Shown here in pieces: positions 2,182 to 15,654 of a DNA stretch of 15,847 nucleotides. Numbering within the stretch: position 1 is the stretch's first letter; each line of letters opens with the position of its first letter. This DNA is from Anaerolineae bacterium (GTDB lineage: Bacteria; Chloroflexota; Anaerolineae; JAFGEY01). The stretch spans positions 1 to 15,847 of the forward strand of contig JAFGEY010000427.1 of assembly GCA_016931365.1 (NCBI GenBank), given 5' to 3'. The position numbers and the translations under genes are program-made. The notes under the pieces were generated by a model. The model did not search any database, was not told the DNA's origin, and was given only the letters and a program-made list of their open reading frames with translations.

Positions 2182-2282
2182 GGAGTGCAGCTGTAGTTTG
2201 GGGCGCATCCTTTGCTGCTCGCCAATGGCGCTAAAGAACACTGTTTGTTGGCGACGCGCTTGCCCCAAACTCCGCGTGCTCC
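2182..2282. mobile_element. Short palindromic MITE-like element with flanking target duplication
   Basis: A roughly 101-base element begins GGAG and ends CTCC. Its termini are imperfect inverted repeats with a perfect internal block (GTTTGGGGC 2196-2204, GCCCCAAAC 2262-2270) and an inner pair (TCGCCAA 2220-2225 region, TTGGCGA 2248-2254 region), so the whole element can fold on itself. It is flanked by the same direct repeat, CCGGCCAT at 2174-2181 and 2283-2290 (CCCGGCCAT if one shared C is counted). This is what a target-site duplication from insertion would look like. It has no coding capacity, so it would be non-autonomous. Confidence 0.75.
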
Positions 2283-2328
2283 CCGGCCATTTGTGCTGGT
2301 GCATAAAGTGTAGTAATATCTGAGTTGA

Positions 2329-2360
2329 GTTTTTTCAGTAGAGTCAGTGATTGAAAAAAC
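2329..2360. promoter_or_regulatory. 9-base inverted repeat in the recQ leader
   Basis: GTTTTTTCA (2329-2337) is exactly complementary to TGAAAAAAC (2352-2360), with 14 bases between. It ends one base before the GGAG ribosome binding site of the helicase gene. It could be an operator or a leader hairpin that occludes or exposes the binding site. I found no convincing -35/-10 pair beside it. Confidence 0.45.
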
Positions 2361-2369
2361 GGAGAAACG

Positions 2370-4445
2370 ATGACACACCGCGAACGTGTCCTCGCTCACC
2401 TGCGTACCATGCTCGGCGCACAGGCAGACTTTCGCCCCGGGCAATGGGAAGCCATTGAAGCTGTTGCCGTGCATAAAAAGCGCGCCCTGGTTGTCCAGCG
2501 CACTGGATGGGGCAAAAGCCTGGTGTATTTTCTCGCCACCAAACTTTTGCGCGAACAGAACGCAGGCCCCACTCTACTCATCAGCCCGCTGCTCTCGCTC
2601 ATGCGCAATCAGATCGAGATGGCCAAGAGGATCGGCATCCGCGCTTACACCATCCACAGCGCCAACCGCGAAGAATGGGAGGCAGTCGAGGCCGCGCTCG
2701 AAGAGAATGCCTGCGATGTTTTGCTCATCTCGCCCGAACGCCTGAACAACGAGCGATTTCTCCAATCAGTCTTGCCCGGCATGGCTGGGAAGGTGGGCTT
2801 GTTTGTGGTGGACGAAGCCCACTGCATCTCTGACTGGGGACACGATTTCCGCCCCGATTACCGCCGCATTGTGCGCATCCTGCGAATGCTTCCCAAAAGC
2901 GCCCCGGTGTTGGGGACTACCGCCACAGCCAATAACCGCGTGGTGGCCGATATTCGAGCGCAATTGGGAGATGATCTGCTCATCTTACGCGGGCCGCTCG
3001 CCCGTGAGTCATTGCGACTGCAAACCATCACGCTTGCCAATCAGAGCGAGCGCCTGGCCTGGCTGGTGGAAAACCTGCCCAAACTGCCCGGCAGCGGCAT
3101 TATCTATTGCCTGACCGTGCCGGATACCGAACGGGTGGCCGGCTGGCTGCGACAAAAGGGCTTTTCGGCTGCTGCATATCACGCCGAAAGCCCCGACCGT
3201 CCCGCCTTGGAGCAAGCCTTTCTGGACAACAACATCAAAACGCTGGTGGCGACGGTGGCGCTGGGCATGGGCTTTGACAAACCCGACATCGGCTATGTCA
3301 TTCACTTTCAGCGTCCCGGATCGGTCGTGGCCTATTATCAGCAGGTTGGACGCGCCGGGCGGGCGGTGGAGCGGGCCTATGGCATCTTGCTCAGTGGCGC
3401 TGAAGATGACGAAATTCAAGACTATTTTATCGAATCCGCTTTCCCCAGCCTCGAAATCATGCGCCAAACCCTGGCGGCGCTTGAACGCAGTGAAGGACTG
3501 TCAATCAATGAAATCCTGGCCCAGGTCAATGTCAGCCGGAGCACGCTGGAAAAAGCCCTCAAACTGCTCGAAGTGGATGGAGCGGTCGGAGCCGCCTTTG
3601 AGAATCGCAAGACCGTCTATTTCCGCACGCCCAATGCCTGGAATCCCGACAGCGAACGCATCGAGCGCGTTACCAACCTGCGCCGCGCCGAGCAAGCCCA
3701 CATGCAGGCGTACATGGCGCATACCGGCTGTTTGATGGAATTTCTGCAGTGCGCTCTCGATGACGCGCGCCCTCAACCCTGTGGGCGCTGTGCCAACTGC
3801 CGGGGTAAGGGATTGCCGCAGACCGTCTCCTTTGCGCTTGTCGTTGAAGCCGAAAGCTATTTGAAAGGCGCCGCCATCCTCATCAAACCGCGCCTCATGC
3901 TTCCGGCGGGCATTTTCCTTGAGCAAAAACGTACTATCCCGCCCGAATTGCTCAACGAAACCGGTCGTTCCTTGTGTTATTATGGCGATGCCGGATGGGG
4001 CACGCTGGTGCGCGCCGGGAAATACGAACACAACCATTTTTCGGATGATTTGGTGCAAGCTGCCGCCCGTCTCATCCGCGAAATCTGGCGGCCTGAACCA
4101 TTCCCGGCCTGGTTGACCGCCATCCCATCCCGCCGCCATCCGGAACTCGTTCCCGATTTTGCCGTGCGGCTCGCTAATCGATTGGACATTCCGTTCAAGC
4201 CCGTGCTGGTACGTGTGGCGAACGCTGAACCACAAAAGCTTATGCAAAACAGTTCCATGCAAGCACGAAACGTGTTGAATACGCTCGACCTTTGCGACAA
4301 GATACCCGACGCTCCCGTGTTGCTGATAGATGACATTCTCGATTCCGGCTGGACACTGACTATGGCTGGTTACATGCTGCGCAAACATGGCTCCGGACCA
4401 GTCTATCCCTTTACTCTGGCGCAAGCCACTGCGAGAAATACATGA
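2370..4445 (+). CDS. RecQ-type DNA helicase fused to a C-terminal phosphoribosyltransferase-like domain
   Basis: A 691-residue protein; ATG 2370 is preceded by GGAG with 5-base spacing. Superfamily 2 helicase motifs are complete: RTGWGKS (Walker A, 44-50), DEAHCISDWGHDFRPDY (148-164, the RecQ DEAH box plus aromatic-rich loop), TTATA (183-187) and QQVGRAGR (324-331). Zinc ligands C454, C471, C474 and C477 have exactly the RecQ spacing (17, 3, 3). There is no HRDC domain. Residues about 575-685 instead resemble ComF-type phosphoribosyltransferases, with a PRPP-loop-like LLIDDILDSGWTL at 651-663. The expected activity is ATP-driven 3'-5' DNA unwinding; the PRTase substrate is unknown. The Trp in Walker A and the PRTase fusion match a RecQ subfamily I recall from Actinobacteria. 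Its stop overlaps the dprA-like start by ATGA, implying translational coupling. It is unlikely to be the housekeeping RecQ. Confidence 0.9.
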   Translation: MTHRERVLAHLRTMLGAQADFRPGQWEAIEAVAVHKKRALVVQRTGWGKSLVYFLATKLLREQNAGPTLLISPLLSLMRNQIEMAKRIGIRAYTIHSANREEWEAVEAALEENACDVLLISPERLNNERFLQSVLPGMAGKVGLFVVDEAHCISDWGHDFRPDYRRIVRILRMLPKSAPVLGTTATANNRVVADIRAQLGDDLLILRGPLARESLRLQTITLANQSERLAWLVENLPKLPGSGIIYCLTVPDTERVAGWLRQKGFSAAAYHAESPDRPALEQAFLDNNIKTLVATVALGMGFDKPDIGYVIHFQRPGSVVAYYQQVGRAGRAVERAYGILLSGAEDDEIQDYFIESAFPSLEIMRQTLAALERSEGLSINEILAQVNVSRSTLEKALKLLEVDGAVGAAFENRKTVYFRTPNAWNPDSERIERVTNLRRAEQAHMQAYMAHTGCLMEFLQCALDDARPQPCGRCANCRGKGLPQTVSFALVVEAESYLKGAAILIKPRLMLPAGIFLEQKRTIPPELLNETGRSLCYYGDAGWGTLVRAGKYEHNHFSDDLVQAAARLIREIWRPEPFPAWLTAIPSRRHPELVPDFAVRLANRLDIPFKPVLVRVANAEPQKLMQNSSMQARNVLNTLDLCDKIPDAPVLLIDDILDSGWTLTMAGYMLRKHGSGPVYPFTLAQATARNT

Positions 4446-5413
4446 TCACTCAAGACGCTCAAGCTTTATTGCTGCTCTGCTCTCACCTGGGGTTGCCTGA
4501 TGAGCCACCGTTTGCCCCCCTTACCCTGCGCGAGTGGAATCCGCTGGCCCGTAAACTGCAAGCCCTTAATTTGCGCCCCGGCAGCTTGCTGGACCGGGAT
4601 GGGTCCGATCTCCAAACGCAACTTGCCCTGCCGCCTGCCCAAGTCGAACGGCTTGCCGGTCTGCTGGCCCGTCACGGCGCGCTGGCGATCGTGCTGGAAA
4701 GGCTGGCTTCGCTCGGCATTTACCCGCTCACCCGCGCCGACGTGGACTATCCCCAGCGTTATCGCCAGCGTCTCAAAGATTCTGCTCCGGCAGTGTTGTT
4801 CTATGCCGGTGAAAAAGCCCTGCTCGGTCAGCCGGGGATCGCCATTGTAGGATCGCGCCACCTCGACCAGGCCGGGCAGGAATGTGCAAAACTCGTCGGC
4901 GGCGCCTGCGGGGTTTCCGGACAGGTGCTCTATTCCGGCGGCGCAAGGGGCGTGGATACGCTCAGCATGGAAGCGGCGCTCCAAGCGCGCGGCACGGCGG
5001 TTGGCGTGCTGGCCGATAGTTTGGAGAAGACTGTCCGCAAATGGCAGGACGCTCTGCGGCGCGGCGACCTGTGCCTGATGACCCCATACAGCCCCGACGC
5101 CGGATTCTCGGTCGGCGCGGCGATGGGACGCAACCGGCTTATCTACTGCCTGTCCGATTACGCCATCGTGGTCGCCAGCGATGCCGAAACCGGCGGCACA
5201 TGGGCGGGCGCCACCGAGGCGCTCAAAAACGGTTGGGCGCCGATCTTTGTGTTGGAACACGCGCAAATGCCCGAAGGCAACAAACGCTTGCTGCAAAAAG
5301 GCGCGCTACCCTTCCCCCATCCTTTCCGGGAATCACCCTTAAGGCTTTCGGCATGGCTTGGCGAACACTCATCCGGACAGGCCGGGTCATTGAGACAGAT
5401 GACGTTGTTCTAA
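4442..5413 (+). CDS. DprA/Smf-like SLOG-domain protein
   Basis: A 323-residue protein beginning at the ATGA overlap with the helicase gene. The Rossmann-like SLOG core of DprA is clear: AIVGSRHLDQAG (134-145), SGGARGVD (165-172), GRNRLIYCLSDYAIVVAS (229-246) and ETGGTW (249-254). DprA proteins bind single-stranded DNA and load RecA during transformation; related SLOG domains also bind nucleotides in immune and toxin-antitoxin systems. The N-terminal 100 residues are a helical region with DYPQRY before the core, as in DprA. The C-terminus ends shortly after the core, and I see no clear winged-helix domain. Location beside a helicase-PRTase fusion and an HNH protein suggests an accessory system rather than ordinary competence. 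Family assignment is firm; the role is inferred. Confidence 0.88.
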   Translation: MITQDAQALLLLCSHLGLPDEPPFAPLTLREWNPLARKLQALNLRPGSLLDRDGSDLQTQLALPPAQVERLAGLLARHGALAIVLERLASLGIYPLTRADVDYPQRYRQRLKDSAPAVLFYAGEKALLGQPGIAIVGSRHLDQAGQECAKLVGGACGVSGQVLYSGGARGVDTLSMEAALQARGTAVGVLADSLEKTVRKWQDALRRGDLCLMTPYSPDAGFSVGAAMGRNRLIYCLSDYAIVVASDAETGGTWAGATEALKNGWAPIFVLEHAQMPEGNKRLLQKGALPFPHPFRESPLRLSAWLGEHSSGQAGSLRQMTLF

Positions 5414-5496
5414 AATTCATGAACAATTCCAGTTCATCATTCTCTTGATAATTTTACTGGTTTGAGTTGAGATTTCTTATTCCAAAGGGGCAATAC

Positions 5497-6612
5497 ATGA
5501 ACCTTCCCCCTGTTCCCAACCTGCCGGTCGAACACCTTGCCGCCAGTTTTGACAAAGTGACCAATTCCTACAAGTTCTACTGGTTTCTGGCGATTCTGGG
5601 ACATATCCATGGGCATCAGGTGCGGGTCATTCCTATCCAAGATCTCCTGGCGCAGATGGTGGCGGAGGTGTGGTATCCGGCGCACTACTTTCGGCTTTCG
5701 TTTGGCAAGCAAGATCGACTAGGGATGATTGCGCTCGACTTGGCGGGGCAGGGACGGTTGACGACCGAAAGCAGACGCGCCCAAGTGCTCCACACTGTGC
5801 GCGATGACCTGGCTCAACAGACCGCTATCGGGCGCAAAATTCACAGTCTGGGCGATTACGTTCCTTATCGCTTCTTACGTCCTTTCTTTATGGCGCAACT
5901 GCGCGGGGTGGATGATTGGAAGATCAACCCCGCCATCGAAGCGCTTGCTGGTCAATCACTTACCAATTTGCCCCCCTGCCTGTATCGTTTTCTCGCCCAA
6001 CCCGCGCCCTCCATTGAAATTCATCCCGCCTGGTTCGATTATCTCAACCAACACATTGCGATTTTGAGTGGCTTTTGCCTATGGCATCTGGTCAACTACC
6101 TACAAAAGAACAATCCCAACGTCCCCAACATTGCTGGGAAATTGTTTGAGCCGCAGGAACGCGACCTAAAACAGGCCAAAACCTTCTGGAACAGCGTTTT
6201 GCAACAGACTGGCGGCCTGAGTTGCATCTATTCGGGGCAGCCGATAATGAAAGGCGATTTCTCGCTCGACCATTTCCTGCCTTGGCGCTTCGTGGCGCAC
6301 GATTTACTCTGGAATATCGTTCCCACACCCAAAACAGTCAATTCATCCAAAAGTGATAACCTGCCGGATTTTGCGCTCTACTTCGACCCATTTGCCAGAT
6401 TGCAACACCAAGCCGTCCAGGTAACCGCGCGCACTCCGCATATAGCCAGATTGCTTGAAGACTATGTGCTGTTGTTCAAGGTAAGTTCCGTCACAGATTT
6501 TCAGGTAACGAGTTTTCGATCGTTTCGCGACACTCTTTATCAGGCCATGGCCCCGCAGGCGCAAATTGCGGCAAATATGGGCTTTGCGACAGGATGGAAA
6601 TACACGTCATGA
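5497..6612 (+). CDS. HNH-endonuclease-domain protein
   Basis: A 371-residue protein. I chose ATG 5497 because AAAGGGG lies 6 bases upstream; an in-frame TTG at 5467 has no such site. The C-terminal third carries an HNH (beta-beta-alpha metal) signature: CIYSG (243-247), SLDHFLPW with D258-H259, FVAHDLLWNIVP with H268 and N273, then NSSKSDNLP starting at N282. These residues would bind the metal and attack the phosphodiester. The N-terminal half, from TNSYKFYWFLAILG (22-35), is helical and unlike anything I can name, and may recognise substrate or a partner protein. It lies 83 bases after the dprA-like stop with no terminator between them, and it overlaps the next gene. GC content is lower than in the flanking genes (about 42% at 6481-6540), consistent with transfer. 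The nuclease target is unknown. Confidence 0.85.
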   Translation: MNLPPVPNLPVEHLAASFDKVTNSYKFYWFLAILGHIHGHQVRVIPIQDLLAQMVAEVWYPAHYFRLSFGKQDRLGMIALDLAGQGRLTTESRRAQVLHTVRDDLAQQTAIGRKIHSLGDYVPYRFLRPFFMAQLRGVDDWKINPAIEALAGQSLTNLPPCLYRFLAQPAPSIEIHPAWFDYLNQHIAILSGFCLWHLVNYLQKNNPNVPNIAGKLFEPQERDLKQAKTFWNSVLQQTGGLSCIYSGQPIMKGDFSLDHFLPWRFVAHDLLWNIVPTPKTVNSSKSDNLPDFALYFDPFARLQHQAVQVTARTPHIARLLEDYVLLFKVSSVTDFQVTSFRSFRDTLYQAMAPQAQIAANMGFATGWKYTS

Positions 6613-7514
6613 ATCTGGTTTTTCAGTCGCCACAAAACCCCAACAGCCATCTGACGGTTAAAGAACGCCGACGAGTTTCGTTTCCGGCGCGACATTTGTT
6701 CAATCAGTATTTGATTCGCGGGCGGGTGCTGGATTTTGGAAGTGGCTTGGGCGCGGATGTAGACTTTCTACGTCAAAAGGGGTTCGACATCACTAGCTAT
6801 GATCCCCACTACGCCCCCGACCCACCACAGGGCAAATTTGACACTATTATATGCACCTATGTCCTGAATATCTTGCTTCCCGAAGAGCAGGCGCACGTCC
6901 TGATGGCTGTTGCGGAATTGCTCAAACCTGAAGGTAAAGCCTATTTTACTGTGCGACGCGATATTCAGCAGGATGGTTTCCGCACCCACGTCAAACATAG
7001 CGTGAGCGTTTACCAGTGTAACGTCAAACTGCCTTATCGTAGTTTCTTGCGCACTGAACATTGTGAAATCTACGAGTATCAACACTATAACCGCCTGCTG
7101 CACCCCAACCCTGAAAACTGCCCATTTTGCGCCCCTGACTTGGAACGGGAATTGATTACCGAGTCTGCAACGGCTTTTGCGATCTTGGACAAGTATCCGG
7201 TTTCGCCTGGTCATACATTGGTCATTCCCAAAAAACACATTGTCAATTACTTTGACCTGTCCACTCACACCAAAACCGCCTGTTGGCTGATGACCGACCG
7301 CCTGAAAATGCTCCTGACCGAGCGTTTTTACCCGGATGGCTTTAATGTGGGCATCAACATTGGCTCAGCCGCCGGGCAAACCGTCCCGCATGTACATATC
7401 CACATCATCCCGCGTTACGCAGGGGATGTAGAAAATCCTGCTGGCGGAGTACGGCATATAATACCGGGCAAGGGGGATTATTTGCACAACAAGCCAATCC
7501 CGGCGCTGGCATAA
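6609..7514 (+). CDS. SAM-dependent methyltransferase-HIT hydrolase fusion
   Basis: A 301-residue protein. ATG 6609 forms an ATGA overlap with the preceding stop, like the recQ-dprA junction. An alternative in-frame ATG at 6594 would add five residues. The N-terminal half is a class I methyltransferase: VLDFGSGLGADVDFL (40-54, SAM-binding loop), YDPHY (64-68), FDTIICTYVLNIL (77-89) and LLKPEGKAYFTVRRD (104-118). The C-terminal half is a HIT domain: CPFC (171-174), PGHTLVIPKKH (200-210) and the catalytic triad HVHIHIIPR (H261, H263, H265). HIT enzymes hydrolyse or transfer nucleotidyl groups from nucleotides or adenylated ends. The methyl acceptor and nucleotide substrate are not evident. As the last gene before a strong terminator it closes the cassette. 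GC is about 48% at 6841-6900, below the window average. Domain assignments are firm; the function is open. Confidence 0.88.
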   Translation: MNLVFQSPQNPNSHLTVKERRRVSFPARHLFNQYLIRGRVLDFGSGLGADVDFLRQKGFDITSYDPHYAPDPPQGKFDTIICTYVLNILLPEEQAHVLMAVAELLKPEGKAYFTVRRDIQQDGFRTHVKHSVSVYQCNVKLPYRSFLRTEHCEIYEYQHYNRLLHPNPENCPFCAPDLERELITESATAFAILDKYPVSPGHTLVIPKKHIVNYFDLSTHTKTACWLMTDRLKMLLTERFYPDGFNVGINIGSAAGQTVPHVHIHIIPRYAGDVENPAGGVRHIIPGKGDYLHNKPIPALA

Positions 7515-7578
7515 TCCTGCCGTCGCAATTCAAACGAATCGGCGTGTGTGCCGGCCTGAGATTCTCCGAGCAAAATAA

Positions 7579-7625
7579 AGCCTTGTAAGGATGCCCCGCC
7601 GGGGCATCTCTACAAGGCTGTTTTT
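7579..7625. terminator. Strong bidirectional hairpin terminator
   Basis: Stem AGCCTTGTA (7579-7587) with TACAAGGCT (7611-7619) continues, after a 2-base mismatch, into GATGCCCC (7590-7597) with GGGGCATC (7601-7608). A T run follows at 7621-7625. On the other strand the hairpin is followed by TTATTTT, so it can also end the minus-strand operon whose last gene stops at 7670. The inner stem resembles dispersed GC-rich palindromes. A further GC hairpin (GCGGGC 7641-7646, GCCCGC 7651-7656) lies beside it. Confidence 0.85.
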
Positions 7626-12055: not shown

Positions 12056-13720
<1,665 letters not shown>

Positions 13721-13732
13721 AGGATAGATACA

Positions 13733-14140
13733 ATGAAACCCACCAAACTCAACCATCTCGGCATCGCCGTGCACGATCTCGACGCGGCGGCCCGAATCTA
13801 CCAGGCGTTGGGCTTATATGTGGAGAAAATCGTCGACGTGCCGGAGCAGCAGGTGCGCGTGGCCTTTATCCCGGTTGGCGAGAGCACCATCGAACTGGTG
13901 CAGCCCACCTCGCCCGACAGCACGATCGCCCGCTTTCTGGAAAAAAACGGCGAAGGGCTGCATCACCTGGCACTGCAAGTAAGCGATGTGCAAGCCTCGC
14001 TCGGCGAACTCCAGGCACAAGGCATTCAACTGATCAACGAAGCGCCGCGCCACGGCGCGGAAGGTTTGATCGCCTTTTTGCACCCCAAGAGCACCGGGCG
14101 GGTGCTGATCGAGTTGGTGGAAACGACCGCCGACCACTGA
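13733..14140 (+). CDS. mce: Methylmalonyl-CoA epimerase
   Basis: A 135-residue protein of the vicinal-oxygen-chelate (glyoxalase/bleomycin-resistance) superfamily; AGGA ends 8 bases before ATG 13733, and the gene begins 12 bases after the mutase stop. Two VOC modules are visible (LNHLGIAVHDLDAA and GLHHLALQVSDVQA), with probable metal ligands H8, Q57, H77 and E127. The IELVQPTSPDST and AFLHPKSTGRVLIELVE segments are diagnostic for this epimerase. It interconverts the (S) and (R) forms of methylmalonyl-CoA so the mutase can use the product of propionyl-CoA carboxylation. The last residues after LVE (TTADH) and the stop codon lie inside an intergenic inverted repeat. Confidence 0.93.
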   Translation: MKPTKLNHLGIAVHDLDAAARIYQALGLYVEKIVDVPEQQVRVAFIPVGESTIELVQPTSPDSTIARFLEKNGEGLHHLALQVSDVQASLGELQAQGIQLINEAPRHGAEGLIAFLHPKSTGRVLIELVETTADH

Positions 14141-14190
14141 CTGTAGACCACCGACGACGGTCGGCCGTCTGTGGTCGATGGTCAGCGGTC
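14125..14190. repeat. GACCACCGAC-type inverted repeat, copy B
   Basis: GACCGC (14125-14130) and GCGGTC (14185-14190) form the outer pair. The inner arms, built from GACCACTGAC and GACCACCGACGACGG, pair imperfectly with TCGGCCGTCTGTGGTCGATGG. The repeat covers the epimerase stop codon and ends 9 bases before the next ribosome binding site. Confidence 0.7.
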
Positions 14191-14209
14191 TTGATCAACA
14201 GGAGCAGAT

Positions 14210-14620
14210 ATGCACAAAATTCGCGTTCTCATCGCCAAACCCGGCCTCGACGGCCACGACCGGGGGGCCAAAGTGGTCGCCCGCGGGCTGCGCGACGCGG
14301 GGATGGAAGTGATTTACACCGGCTTGCGCCAGACGCCGGAAATGATCGTCGAGGCGGCGCTGCAAGAAGACGTCGACGTGATCGGGTTGAGCATCCTCTC
14401 CGGCGCGCACATGACCCTTTTTCCGCGCGTGATCGCGCTGCTCAAGCAGCACGAGATGGATGACGTGCTCGTCATCGGCGGCGGGATCATCCCCGAGGAG
14501 GATGCTGCTGCGCTGAAAGCGCTGGGCGTGGCGGCGATCTTTGGCCCCGGCACCCCCATCGGCAAGATCGTCGAATTTATCCAGGCTAACGTCAGGCGAC
14601 CGCCGACCACGAACAACTGA
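14210..14620 (+). CDS. mcmA2: Methylmalonyl-CoA mutase, small B12-binding subunit
   Basis: A 136-residue protein with AGGAG (14200-14204) 5 bases before ATG 14210. It is a stand-alone cobalamin-binding domain: DGHDRG gives the D-x-H-x-x-G motif (D14, H16, G19) whose His replaces dimethylbenzimidazole as the cobalt ligand, followed by SILSG (61-65) and GGGIIP (90-95). [28 protein letters not shown] is nearly identical to the C-terminal domain of one-piece mutases. It pairs with the large subunit encoded upstream. The last eight or so residues (RRPPTTNN) come from the start of an intergenic repeat, so the natural domain probably ends just before. Confidence 0.95.
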
Positions 14621-14671
14621 CGACCGACCACCGACTATAGTTGTTCGCGGTCAGCGGTCAGCAGTCGGCGG
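14599..14671. repeat. GACCACCGAC-type inverted repeat, copy C
   Basis: Bases 14599-14617 pair with 14640-14658 at 17 of 19 positions. An alternative register pairs CCGACCACCGAC (14624-14635) with GTCGGCGG (14664-14671). The repeat overlaps the small-subunit stop codon and fills the gap before meaB. Confidence 0.72.
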
Positions 14672-14688
14672 TTTAAATTGAACAGGCA

Positions 14689-15654
14689 ATGAACATAGAA
14701 CAGCATATAGACTTGATACAAAGTGTGCTCGAAAACCACAAACGCGCTCTCGCCCGCGCCATTTCGCTGATCGAAGCAAGCGCGTCGTTTGCTAACGCGC
14801 CCGCGCCCACCGCTGCCGACCTGCTCACAGCCCTCTACCCGCACACCGGGCAGGCGCACCTGGTCGGCATCACCGGCGCGCCGGGCACCGGCAAGAGCAC
14901 GCTGGTCAACCAGCTTGCCCGCGCCTATCGCCGGCAAGACGTGCGCGTCGGCATCTTAGCCGTCGATCCGACCAGTCCCTTCACCGGCGGCGCGCTCTTG
15001 GGCGACCGCATCCGCATGCAAGACCTGGCCGGCGATCCCGGCGTGTTCATCCGCAGCATGGCCACGCGCGGCGCGCCGGGCGGCTTGAGCGCGGCCACGT
15101 TCGACGCGGCGCTCATTCTCGACGCGGCGGGATACGGGGTGATTTTGATCGAAACCGTCGGCGCGGGGCAGGACGAGGTCGAAATTGCCCGTCTGGCCGA
15201 CACCGTCGTCGTCGTCGATGCGCCCGGCCTGGGCGACGACGTGCAGGCCGGCAAGGCCGGGCTGATGGAGATCGCCGACATTTTTGTGGTCAACAAGGCC
15301 GATCGACCGGGGGCCGATCAAGCTGTCCGCGCGCTGGAGTTGATGTTGGAGATGGATACCCGGCAAGCCGGCTGGCCGCCGCCGGTGTGCAAGACGGTGT
15401 CCATAGAAGGCACAGGCGTGGAACAGATCATATCTCACATTTATGCTCACCGTCAATACTTGATAAGTCATCATTTTCGAGAAAGCAAAGAAAGACAACG
15501 TGCAGAACACTGGTTGATTCAGAATTTACATTACACCCTTACAGAACGTTTTTTAGCCAATCTGGAACCAGGACAATGGCAAGATATGATCATCCAGATA
15601 GCTACTCGTCAAATAGACCCTTATTCCGCTCTTCACAAGATAATGAAATTCTAG
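14689..15654 (+). CDS. meaB: MeaB/ArgK-family G3E GTPase, mutase chaperone
   Basis: A 321-residue protein starting at ATG 14689 with only a weak binding site (ACAGG). GTPase motifs are complete: Walker A GAPGTGKST (63-71), VDPTSPFTGGALLGDRIRM (92-110), RSMATRGAPGGLS (122-134), ETVGAGQDE (155-163) and NKAD (202-205). MeaB gates loading of adenosylcobalamin onto the mutase and protects it from inactivation, which fits its position next to both subunits. The C-terminal helix bundle with IDPYSALHKIM is also typical, so the protein appears intact. Base composition, however, falls from about 62-70% GC up to 15420 to 35-40% afterwards (residue 245 onward) without loss of homology. This points to recombination or an assembly join within the gene. 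Confidence 0.93.
   Translation: MNIEQHIDLIQSVLENHKRALARAISLIEASASFANAPAPTAADLLTALYPHTGQAHLVGITGAPGTGKSTLVNQLARAYRRQDVRVGILAVDPTSPFTGGALLGDRIRMQDLAGDPGVFIRSMATRGAPGGLSAATFDAALILDAAGYGVILIETVGAGQDEVEIARLADTVVVVDAPGLGDDVQAGKAGLMEIADIFVVNKADRPGADQAVRALELMLEMDTRQAGWPPPVCKTVSIEGTGVEQIISHIYAHRQYLISHHFRESKERQRAEHWLIQNLHYTLTERFLANLEPGQWQDMIIQIATRQIDPYSALHKIMKF

What the first reader, a model, noticed from the sequence alone, without database searches (positions are those of the whole stretch)
2370..7514. Four-gene RecQ-PRTase / DprA / HNH / methyltransferase-HIT cassette
Seen: four same-strand genes with ATGA overlaps at two junctions, an 83-base gap at the third, and one terminator at the end. Known: each domain acts on nucleic acids or nucleotides. 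Inferred: they form one functional system, probably anti-phage or foreign-DNA processing. I do not recognise the combination as a named defence system.
Basis: partly seen in the sequence, partly recalled or inferred. Interest (0 to 1): 0.82.

Follow-up and report, generated by a model that had tools for sequence, protein, structure and literature searches.

The report
PsyrTA toxin pair beside HNH module
The proposed new four-gene defence system is a known bacterial toxin-antitoxin pair (PsyrTA) standing next to a separate, barely studied two-gene nuclease module that elsewhere turns up in DNA-sulfur-modification defence operons.

Summary
The four genes, overlaps, 83-base gap and terminator are real. 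Genes 1-2 match PsyrT and PsyrA (PADLOC E 2e-279 and 9e-102): the known PsyrTA/RqlHI toxin-antitoxin pair. Genes 3-4 (HNH nuclease; methyltransferase-HIT) are a separate module. In 400 Chloroflexota genomes, full-length-like PsyrT occurs in 30, HNH in 4 and methyltransferase-HIT in 2, both beside HNH; one genome has PsyrT and HNH, on different contigs. None of 29 PsyrT neighbourhoods holds HNH, and none of 79 HNH loci matches PsyrA. GC drops at the junction. Against strict independence, one Sinorhizobium plasmid carries psyrT-psyrA-HNH.

The HNH module has only partial PADLOC matches. Phosphorothioation genes sspB, C or D lie near it in 27 of 79 loci, in some plasmids between complete sspC and sspD. 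Where methyltransferase-HIT is present, sspC is usually truncated or absent and sspD missing. I infer a portable nuclease effector, recruited mainly by sulfur-modification defence. The single-system reading is not supported; the module's restriction role is unproven.

The parts
2370..4445 (+). psyrT / rqlH homologue: RecQ-type helicase with C-terminal phosphoribosyltransferase domain (toxin of the pair)
   Evidence: PADLOC PDLC03928 PsyrT E 2.1e-279, residues 3-688 of 691; Pfam DEAD, Helicase_C, Pribosyltran
4442..5413 (+). psyrA / rqlI homologue: DprA-like (SLOG) antitoxin, short form that stops where the model continues
   Evidence: PADLOC PDLC03927 PsyrA E 9.2e-102, profile 3-304 of 398; relatives of 317-340 aa also exist: L123 325, L131 340, L136 317 aa
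5414..5496 (.). A+T-rich junction between the two modules (GC 0.325)
5497..6612 (+). HNH_4 nuclease (Cas9-type HNH domain behind a largely helical N-terminal part of about 240 residues)
6609..7514 (+). class I SAM methyltransferase fused to HIT (histidine-triad) domain, the HNH partner
   Evidence: Pfam Methyltransf_23 and HIT; motif PHVHIH present, conserved in most of 26 aligned relatives
7573..7625 (+). strong terminator hairpin followed by a T run
2182..2284 (.). imperfect inverted repeat upstream of psyrT, possible terminator or structured leader
2321..2333 (+). 13-base box TGAGTTGAGWTTT upstream of psyrT
5463..5475 (+). same 13-base box upstream of the HNH gene
   Evidence: not conserved in other loci

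Best explanation
The interval holds two neighbouring modules. Module 1 is a complete PsyrTA (RqlHI) toxin-antitoxin pair. The RecQ-PRTase protein is toxic to the cell's own DNA through its PRTase domain, and the DprA-like protein binds and restrains it. A signal on DNA would release the toxin and stop the cell. Toxicity and restraint were shown for RqlHI in the literature; here they are inferred by homology, and the trigger is inferred. Module 2 is a portable HNH nuclease with a methyltransferase-HIT partner. I infer that the HNH cuts DNA and the HIT domain hydrolyses a nucleotide-phosphorus bond on a product or cofactor. Its commonest recognisable neighbours are DNA phosphorothioation (Ssp / type-4 BREX) genes, where it would be an extra effector, but it also persists alone or behind other defence genes, as here. 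Likelihoods: two separate modules 0.88; module 1 works as PsyrTA 0.75; module 2 is a phosphorothioation-linked nuclease effector 0.35.
For: PADLOC matches. 30 of 400 Chloroflexota genomes hold PsyrT-like proteins at E <= 3e-165; psyrA is adjacent in 25 of these 30. No HNH, MT-HIT or Ssp match in 29 PsyrT neighbourhoods. HNH in 4 of 400 and MT-HIT in 2 of 400, both next to HNH. No PsyrA match in 79 HNH loci. Top-120 HNH and MT-HIT lists share 35 longest-contig lengths; PsyrT shares only the window's own. GC psyrT 0.58, psyrA 0.63, HNH 0.52, MT-HIT 0.50. sspB/C/D in 27 of 79 HNH loci against 0 of 29 PsyrT loci. DUF4007 in 22 of 50 HNH genomes against 26 of 301 Chloroflexota. HNH lies between sspC and sspD in L068 and in two cyanobacterial plasmids, Cyanobacterium HL-69 and Geminocystis, where the SspC match covers 1147 and 1141 of 1160 positions, each over two reading frames, and SspD is complete.
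Against: Sinorhizobium meliloti pSymB carries psyrT-psyrA-HNH on one strand; its psyrA frame is broken in that record. One 13-base box precedes both psyrT and HNH in the window (7 of 1000 shuffles reach it; found after looking). psyrTA itself has lower GC3 (0.66, 0.70) than the ten other genes measured (0.70-0.86), so the composition step is not all at the junction. 46 of 79 HNH loci show no Ssp or BREX gene, though many contigs are short; of 34 such genomes searched, 1 has DndC. In most MT-HIT-bearing Ssp loci the operon is broken, which fits poorly with a working partnership there. No phosphorothioation gene was found in the window, and no whole genome is held. No activity was measured.
Confidence: 0.6

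Rival explanations
1. One four-gene system: PsyrTA senses or halts invasion, and HNH plus MT-HIT act as its effector and regulator.
For: Same strand, short spacing, common terminator. A second psyrT-psyrA-HNH tandem in Sinorhizobium. A shared 13-base box upstream of psyrT and HNH.
Against: 0 of 29 PsyrT neighbourhoods hold HNH or MT-HIT. 0 of 79 HNH loci match PsyrA. 1 of 400 genomes has both, on different contigs. Composition drop at the junction. Box absent elsewhere: 1 of 90 HNH and 0 of 47 PsyrT upstream stretches, one mismatch allowed, some loci overlapping. Sinorhizobium shows no MT-HIT.
Confidence: 0.1
2. The HNH module cuts phosphorothioated DNA (type IV style), so it cannot live with an active modification operon and selects for its loss. 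That is why sspC is truncated and sspD missing beside HNH-MT-HIT.
For: SspC complete in 3 of 12 MT-HIT-bearing Ssp loci against 20 of 21 HNH-less Chloroflexota Ssp loci; SspD 1 of 12 against 18 of 21. ScoMcrA, an HNH enzyme, cuts PT DNA (PMC3009677, search listing only).
Against: HNH without (MT-)HIT stands beside SspD in 7 of 14 Ssp-linked loci and in plasmid operons with complete SspC and SspD matches. No SRA or sulfur-binding domain matched.
Confidence: 0.2
3. HNH-MT-HIT is a selfish or homing-like unit that lands in defence operons, replacing the sspC end and sspD, and here landed behind psyrA.
For: SspC similarity stops 13-69 bases before the HNH match in L002, L014, L017 and L055, at different points of sspC. 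In L014 the following sspA lacks its N-terminal part (profile match starts at 144 of 371). Tree: at least 19 changes of Ssp linkage on 72 tips.
Against: L002, L014 and L055 (with L013) fall in one clade, so one ancestral arrangement with later erosion is enough. I found no recombinase that recurs beside it, but did not search for shared ends. No match in viral contigs. psyrA ends where its relative in L123, which has no HNH match, also ends.
Confidence: 0.15
4. Module 1 is a DNA-repair or uptake pair rather than defence.
For: PMC4670107 (passages read) reports rqlH without rqlI in 55.3% of strains and DNA-stress phenotypes. PMC12409345 (passages read) saw no phage protection by PsyrTA in its overexpression test.
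Against: PADLOC files it as defence. A DprA-PRTase pair protects against T7 and lambda (PMC9122126, passage read).
Confidence: 0.2

Closest known systems
PsyrTA (Pseudomonas syringae; Sberro 2013, seen only as cited in PMC4670107 and PMC8790059) / RqlHI (E. coli F11; PMC4670107, passages read)
   Same: RecQ-PRTase gene directly upstream of a DprA-like gene; sizes 691/323 aa against 698/400; PsyrT model matched over residues 3-688 of 691
   Different: The window's DprA-like protein is 323 aa and its match stops at profile position 304 of 398, so it lacks the C-terminal part where RqlI carries a helix-turn-helix; followed by HNH-MT-HIT
ShosTA / DprA-PRTase pair (PADLOC ShosA; PMC9122126, passage read)
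   Same: DprA-like protein paired with a PRTase protein; ShosA model matches gene 2 at E 3e-24
   Different: No RecQ helicase in the pair as that passage describes it; PsyrA matches far better (9e-102)
Ssp phosphorothioation defence (SspABCD with SspE or SspFGH; PMC8092258, passages read) and type-4 BREX (PMC12839542: 12 passages, section 34 and part 1 of section 35 read)
   Same: Relatives of genes 3-4 lie in or beside these operons in about a third of loci and on several plasmids
   Different: No Ssp gene found in the window. The HNH protein has no DUF262 match. Nothing that I read of PMC10853773 (8 passages) or PMC12839542 describes an HNH plus methyltransferase-HIT pair
SBD-SRA-HNH type IV enzymes (ScoMcrA)
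   Same: HNH nuclease linked with phosphorothioation
   Different: No SRA or sulfur-binding domain match
Cas9 HNH domain
   Same: Same HNH_4 Pfam family; structural match to about residues 220-363
Thoeris ThsC HIT proteins (PADLOC)
   Same: HIT domain, E 4.3e-10 over residues 167-272
   Different: HIT only; no methyltransferase in that match; no other Thoeris protein matched in the genes tested

Membership tests
PsyrTA / RqlHI | RecQ-type helicase fused to a C-terminal PRTase | tested here: met
PsyrTA / RqlHI | DprA-like partner encoded directly downstream | tested here: met
   PsyrA E 9.2e-102, ATGA overlap
PsyrTA / RqlHI | PRTase acidic motif at the position mutated in RqlH (DIVD663) | tested here: inconclusive
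   Window protein reads VLLIDDILDSGWT, which fits; the equivalence is judged by eye, no alignment with RqlH was made
PsyrTA / RqlHI | Helicase-PRTase toxic alone, neutralised by partner | not testable with these tools
   shown for RqlHI in PMC4670107 (passages read)
Ssp / type-4 BREX phosphorothioation system | sspB-sspC-sspD modification genes in the same locus | tested here: not met
   Neither the four genes nor the seven flanking genes tested match SspA-D; the genes at 12056-15654 are methylmalonyl-CoA enzymes; DNA beyond the window is not held
SspE | DUF262 NTPase with C-terminal HNH | tested here: not met
   only HNH_4 matched; the SspE architecture itself is recalled
SBD-SRA-HNH type IV enzyme | sulfur-binding and SRA domains before HNH | tested here: not met
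   only HNH_4 matched
Cas9/IscB | RuvC plus HNH and guide RNA | tested here: not met
   371 aa, HNH_4 only; no Rfam match in the window
HNH-MT-HIT pair (this report) | HNH gene followed on the same strand by (MT-)HIT | tested here: met
   In the window by sequence; 38 of 79 HNH loci have an MT-HIT or HIT match, 37 downstream and L077 upstream

The most novel reading that the evidence does not exclude
The HNH-(methyltransferase-)HIT module is an undescribed restriction effector of phosphorothioation-based immunity. It would be one of the missing partners of the many sspBCD loci that have neither sspE nor sspFGH, and portable enough to be reused beside PsyrTA. Its HIT domain would clear thio- or adenylyl-nucleotides made by modification or cleavage, as HINT1 does with nucleoside phosphorothioates.
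Probability: 0.3. Interest if true: 0.72.

Novelty: new variant of a known kind. Interest (0 to 1): 0.42.

Why it matters
PMC8092258 (passages read) found sspFGH beside sspBCD in 7.3% and sspE in 7.4% of 2,678 strains, so most such loci have no known restriction partner. A conserved HNH nuclease inside or right behind some of these operons, paired with a HIT enzyme in many of its relatives and without a full-length model in the PADLOC copy used here, is a concrete candidate to test. The contrast between operons with sspD (HNH alone, 7 of 14) and without it (HNH with MT-HIT, 11 of 12) makes opposite predictions about whether the nuclease needs or attacks sulfur-modified DNA. For the window itself the result is sobering: two tight, same-strand gene pairs with one terminator can look like one system without being one.

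Tried and rejected
Single four-gene system: rejected on co-occurrence, composition and the PADLOC match.

psyrA truncated by insertion of the HNH module: rejected, because L123 (55% identical, no HNH match) ends at the same place.

HNH and MT-HIT as strict phosphorothioation partners: weakened, because 46 of 79 loci have no Ssp/BREX gene nearby. DndC was sought in 40 genomes: 4 have it (L040, L047, L060, L071); six of the 40 loci do have an Ssp-type gene, and of the other 34 only L040's genome has DndC. Same-strand neighbours of loci without Ssp genes are mixed: 69 of the 151 neighbours listed were scanned (six of the 69 lie on the other strand), giving scattered type IV, PbeA, Cmr, McrBC and HipA matches, at most 3 of 69 for any family shown.
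Full report
OBSERVATION. The genes, overlaps, gap and terminator are as described.

GENES 1-2 ARE PsyrTA. PADLOC gives PsyrT E 2.1e-279 over residues 3-688 of 691 and PsyrA E 9.2e-102 over profile 3-304 of 398. PMC4670107 (passages read) describes the E. coli pair RqlH/RqlI: a RecQ-like helicase whose PRTase domain is genotoxic, and a DprA-like partner that binds and restrains it. It names PsyrT/PsyrA as orthologues. The window's partner is shorter than most of the Chloroflexota relatives aligned, but forms of 317-340 aa exist.

THE TWO HALVES ARE SEPARATE. In 400 Chloroflexota genomes PsyrT matched 60 at E <= 1e-60. Thirty of them match at E <= 3e-165, over nearly the whole protein (one from residue 73); the rest are four 37% full-length matches, fragments, and many matches to the helicase part only. 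psyrA follows in 25 of the 30. HNH was found in 4 of 400, MT-HIT in 2 of 400, each beside HNH. Among the 30, only G335 also has HNH, on another contig (C26 and C51); G389 has HNH and a helicase-only match. I fetched 29 of the 30 PsyrT neighbourhoods (G411 not fetched): none has an HNH, MT-HIT or Ssp match at E <= 1e-8. Of 12 Chloroflexota HNH genomes one matched PsyrT, only over residues 10-438 at 38%. HNH loci from genome contigs are the best 80 of 103 relatives, 79 distinct loci. None of 79 matched PsyrA; five had weak helicase matches of 26-41%. In the top-120 lists, HNH and MT-HIT share 35 longest-contig lengths (mean 1.2, at most 6, when lengths are shifted); PsyrT (118 of 120 rows typed) shares only the window's own. 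Lists are truncated, so this is support, not proof. HNH and MT-HIT have GC 0.52 and 0.50 against 0.58-0.63 for psyrTA and 0.60-0.67 for the other ten genes measured; the gap has GC 0.325. psyrTA itself is slightly low in GC3 (0.66, 0.70), HNH and MT-HIT lower (0.61, 0.56).

AGAINST STRICT INDEPENDENCE. The Sinorhizobium meliloti pSymB record CP090106 has psyrT, psyrA and HNH (31% identical to the window's) in a row on one strand, without an MT-HIT match, in a stretch with transposases and an integrase. psyrA is not annotated there and its frame is broken in that record. In the window a 13-base box precedes both psyrT and HNH; 7 of 1000 shuffled pairs reach this; it was found after looking and is nearly absent from other loci (1 of 90 and 0 of 47).

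THE HNH MODULE ELSEWHERE. HNH has 1537 homologues at E <= 0.001; the loci come from many phyla. An MT-HIT or HIT match lies near HNH in 38 of 79 loci, downstream in 37. Recurrent neighbours were identified with PADLOC, on one representative each, as SspA, B, C, D, F, G, H, PglZ and BrxL. At least one of SspB/C/D lies in 27 of 79 loci and any of the nine in 33 of 79; among loci with 5 kb on both sides, 13 of 39 and 17 of 39. DUF4007 (SspB) is in 22 of 50 HNH genomes searched (50 of the 79 loci were sent); in 14 of the 22 SspB also matches within the HNH locus. The comparison is 26 of 301 Chloroflexota genomes; restricted to Chloroflexota it is 7 of 18 against 26 of 301, p 0.0009 (one genome, G009, is on both sides). 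On plasmids, HNH matched 20 records. I opened nine. Five have phosphorothioation genes beside it: Synechocystis pSYSM, Hymenobacter, Cyanobacterium HL-69, Leptolyngbya, Geminocystis. In HL-69 and Geminocystis HNH lies between SspC (1147 and 1141 of 1160 positions, each over two reading frames) and a complete SspD; in Hymenobacter SspB and SspC are complete and SspD runs off the stretch; in Leptolyngbya a cysteine desulfurase follows and a partial SspC match lies at the edge. Allochromatium and Nostoc show none, one is the Sinorhizobium case, and Methylorubrum has no annotation and no match to SspB, C, D, PsyrT or PsyrA.

A PATTERN IN THE OPERONS. Twelve loci with the two-domain MT-HIT have an SspB, C or D profile match: SspC is complete (over 1080 of 1160 positions) in 3, truncated in 7 and absent in 2; SspD is complete in 1. 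Left out of this count: four loci with a HIT domain alone (L066, L073, L074, L077; SspD complete in two, SspC partial or absent in all, some at contig ends) and L026, whose SspB fragment was seen only by tblastn. In 21 HNH-less Chloroflexota Ssp loci SspC is complete in 20 (the other runs into a contig end) and SspD present in 18 (HNH-less); p 5e-5 and 2e-5. The SspC profile was built partly from those loci, contig ends cut some of the 12, and related loci are counted as independent, so the p values flatter the contrast; Chloroflexota alone give 0 of 4 against 20 of 21. SspC ends at residue 118 (L002), 758 (L055) and 541 (L030) of the L014 protein, with similarity stopping 13-69 bases before HNH in the four Chloroflexota loci. 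HNH without (MT-)HIT instead often has SspD (7 of 14, p 0.04 against 1 of 12). L002, L014 and L055 are one clade with L013, so erosion of one ancestral operon may explain them.

MECHANISM. Shown: sequence families, order, composition, co-occurrence. From the literature: PRTase toxicity and restraint in RqlHI (PMC4670107); SspE needs PT DNA while SspFGH attacks unmodified DNA (PMC8092258, passages read); HINT1 converts nucleoside 5'-phosphorothioates to nucleotides plus H2S (PMC8775712, passages read). Inferred: the HNH protein is a DNA nuclease; the PHVHIH triad makes the HIT domain a likely active hydrolase; the methyltransferase substrate is unknown. The methyltransferase half resembles small-molecule methyltransferases by fold and matches a Dnd-associated methyltransferase model below its cut-off (41 against 150 bits).

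NOVELTY. PsyrTA is known. For HNH-MT-HIT, PADLOC gives only partial matches: Cas9 HNH at E 0.0055 for gene 3, ThsC HIT at 4e-10 and mad2 at 8e-6 for gene 4. Searches, the passages read of PMC10853773 and the passages and sections read of PMC12839542 (which mentions standalone HNH nucleases in BREX loci; its supplements were not open to me) did not show this pair. It may be in that paper's supplement.

Noticed in passing
L057:609-2486, L073:1138-2910: HNH homologues fused at the C-terminus to an S24 (LexA-like) peptidase domain and followed by a stand-alone HIT gene; L072 is a close relative. Suggests autoproteolytic control of the nuclease.
   Followed up: partly
L029:5668-6210; also L020, L024, L045, L069: RNA 2'-phosphotransferase (Tpt1/KptA) genes recur near HNH or MT-HIT, in L029 between them (the Pfam name was tested in L029 and found in two of the scanned neighbours, the rest go by sequence cluster).
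   Followed up: no
L222:3780-9119 (Synechocystis pSYSM): DUF4007, then an SspC that stops early (545 of 1160 positions), a reverse LAGLIDADG endonuclease gene, and HNH: another truncated sspC next to HNH.
   Followed up: partly
L227:2378-5975, L229:359-4253: SspC encoded in two successive reading frames just upstream of HNH on two cyanobacterial plasmids.
   Followed up: no
L055:8891-12805, L030:13834-17895, L194, L198: A protein of about 1230-1350 aa without a significant Pfam match in L055 and L030 (and, for L055, no PADLOC match) lies before pglZ or downstream in Ssp operons.
   Followed up: no
L056:9734-11122: Cyanobacterial HNH homologue with an N-terminal HTH_3 domain.
   Followed up: no
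L016 / G009:C1:1037930-1039037: The HNH gene of Anaerolinea thermolimosa is in two pieces with a stop inside, and has no MT-HIT match.
   Followed up: no
window 2182-2284: Imperfect inverted repeat between gene 1349-2152 and psyrT, RNA fold z -3.62, no Rfam match.
   Followed up: partly
window 5414-5424 and 5492-5502: Near-identical 11-mers AATTCATGAAC / AATACATGAAC flank the gap between psyrA and HNH; could be chance or an insertion scar.
   Followed up: no
window 12056-15654: Methylmalonyl-CoA mutase large and small subunits, epimerase and MeaB GTPase in a row: ordinary metabolism.
   Followed up: no
L223:2640-12719 (E. coli plasmid P3): psyrTA sits inside a type I restriction operon, between the S-subunit and R-subunit genes.
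   Followed up: no
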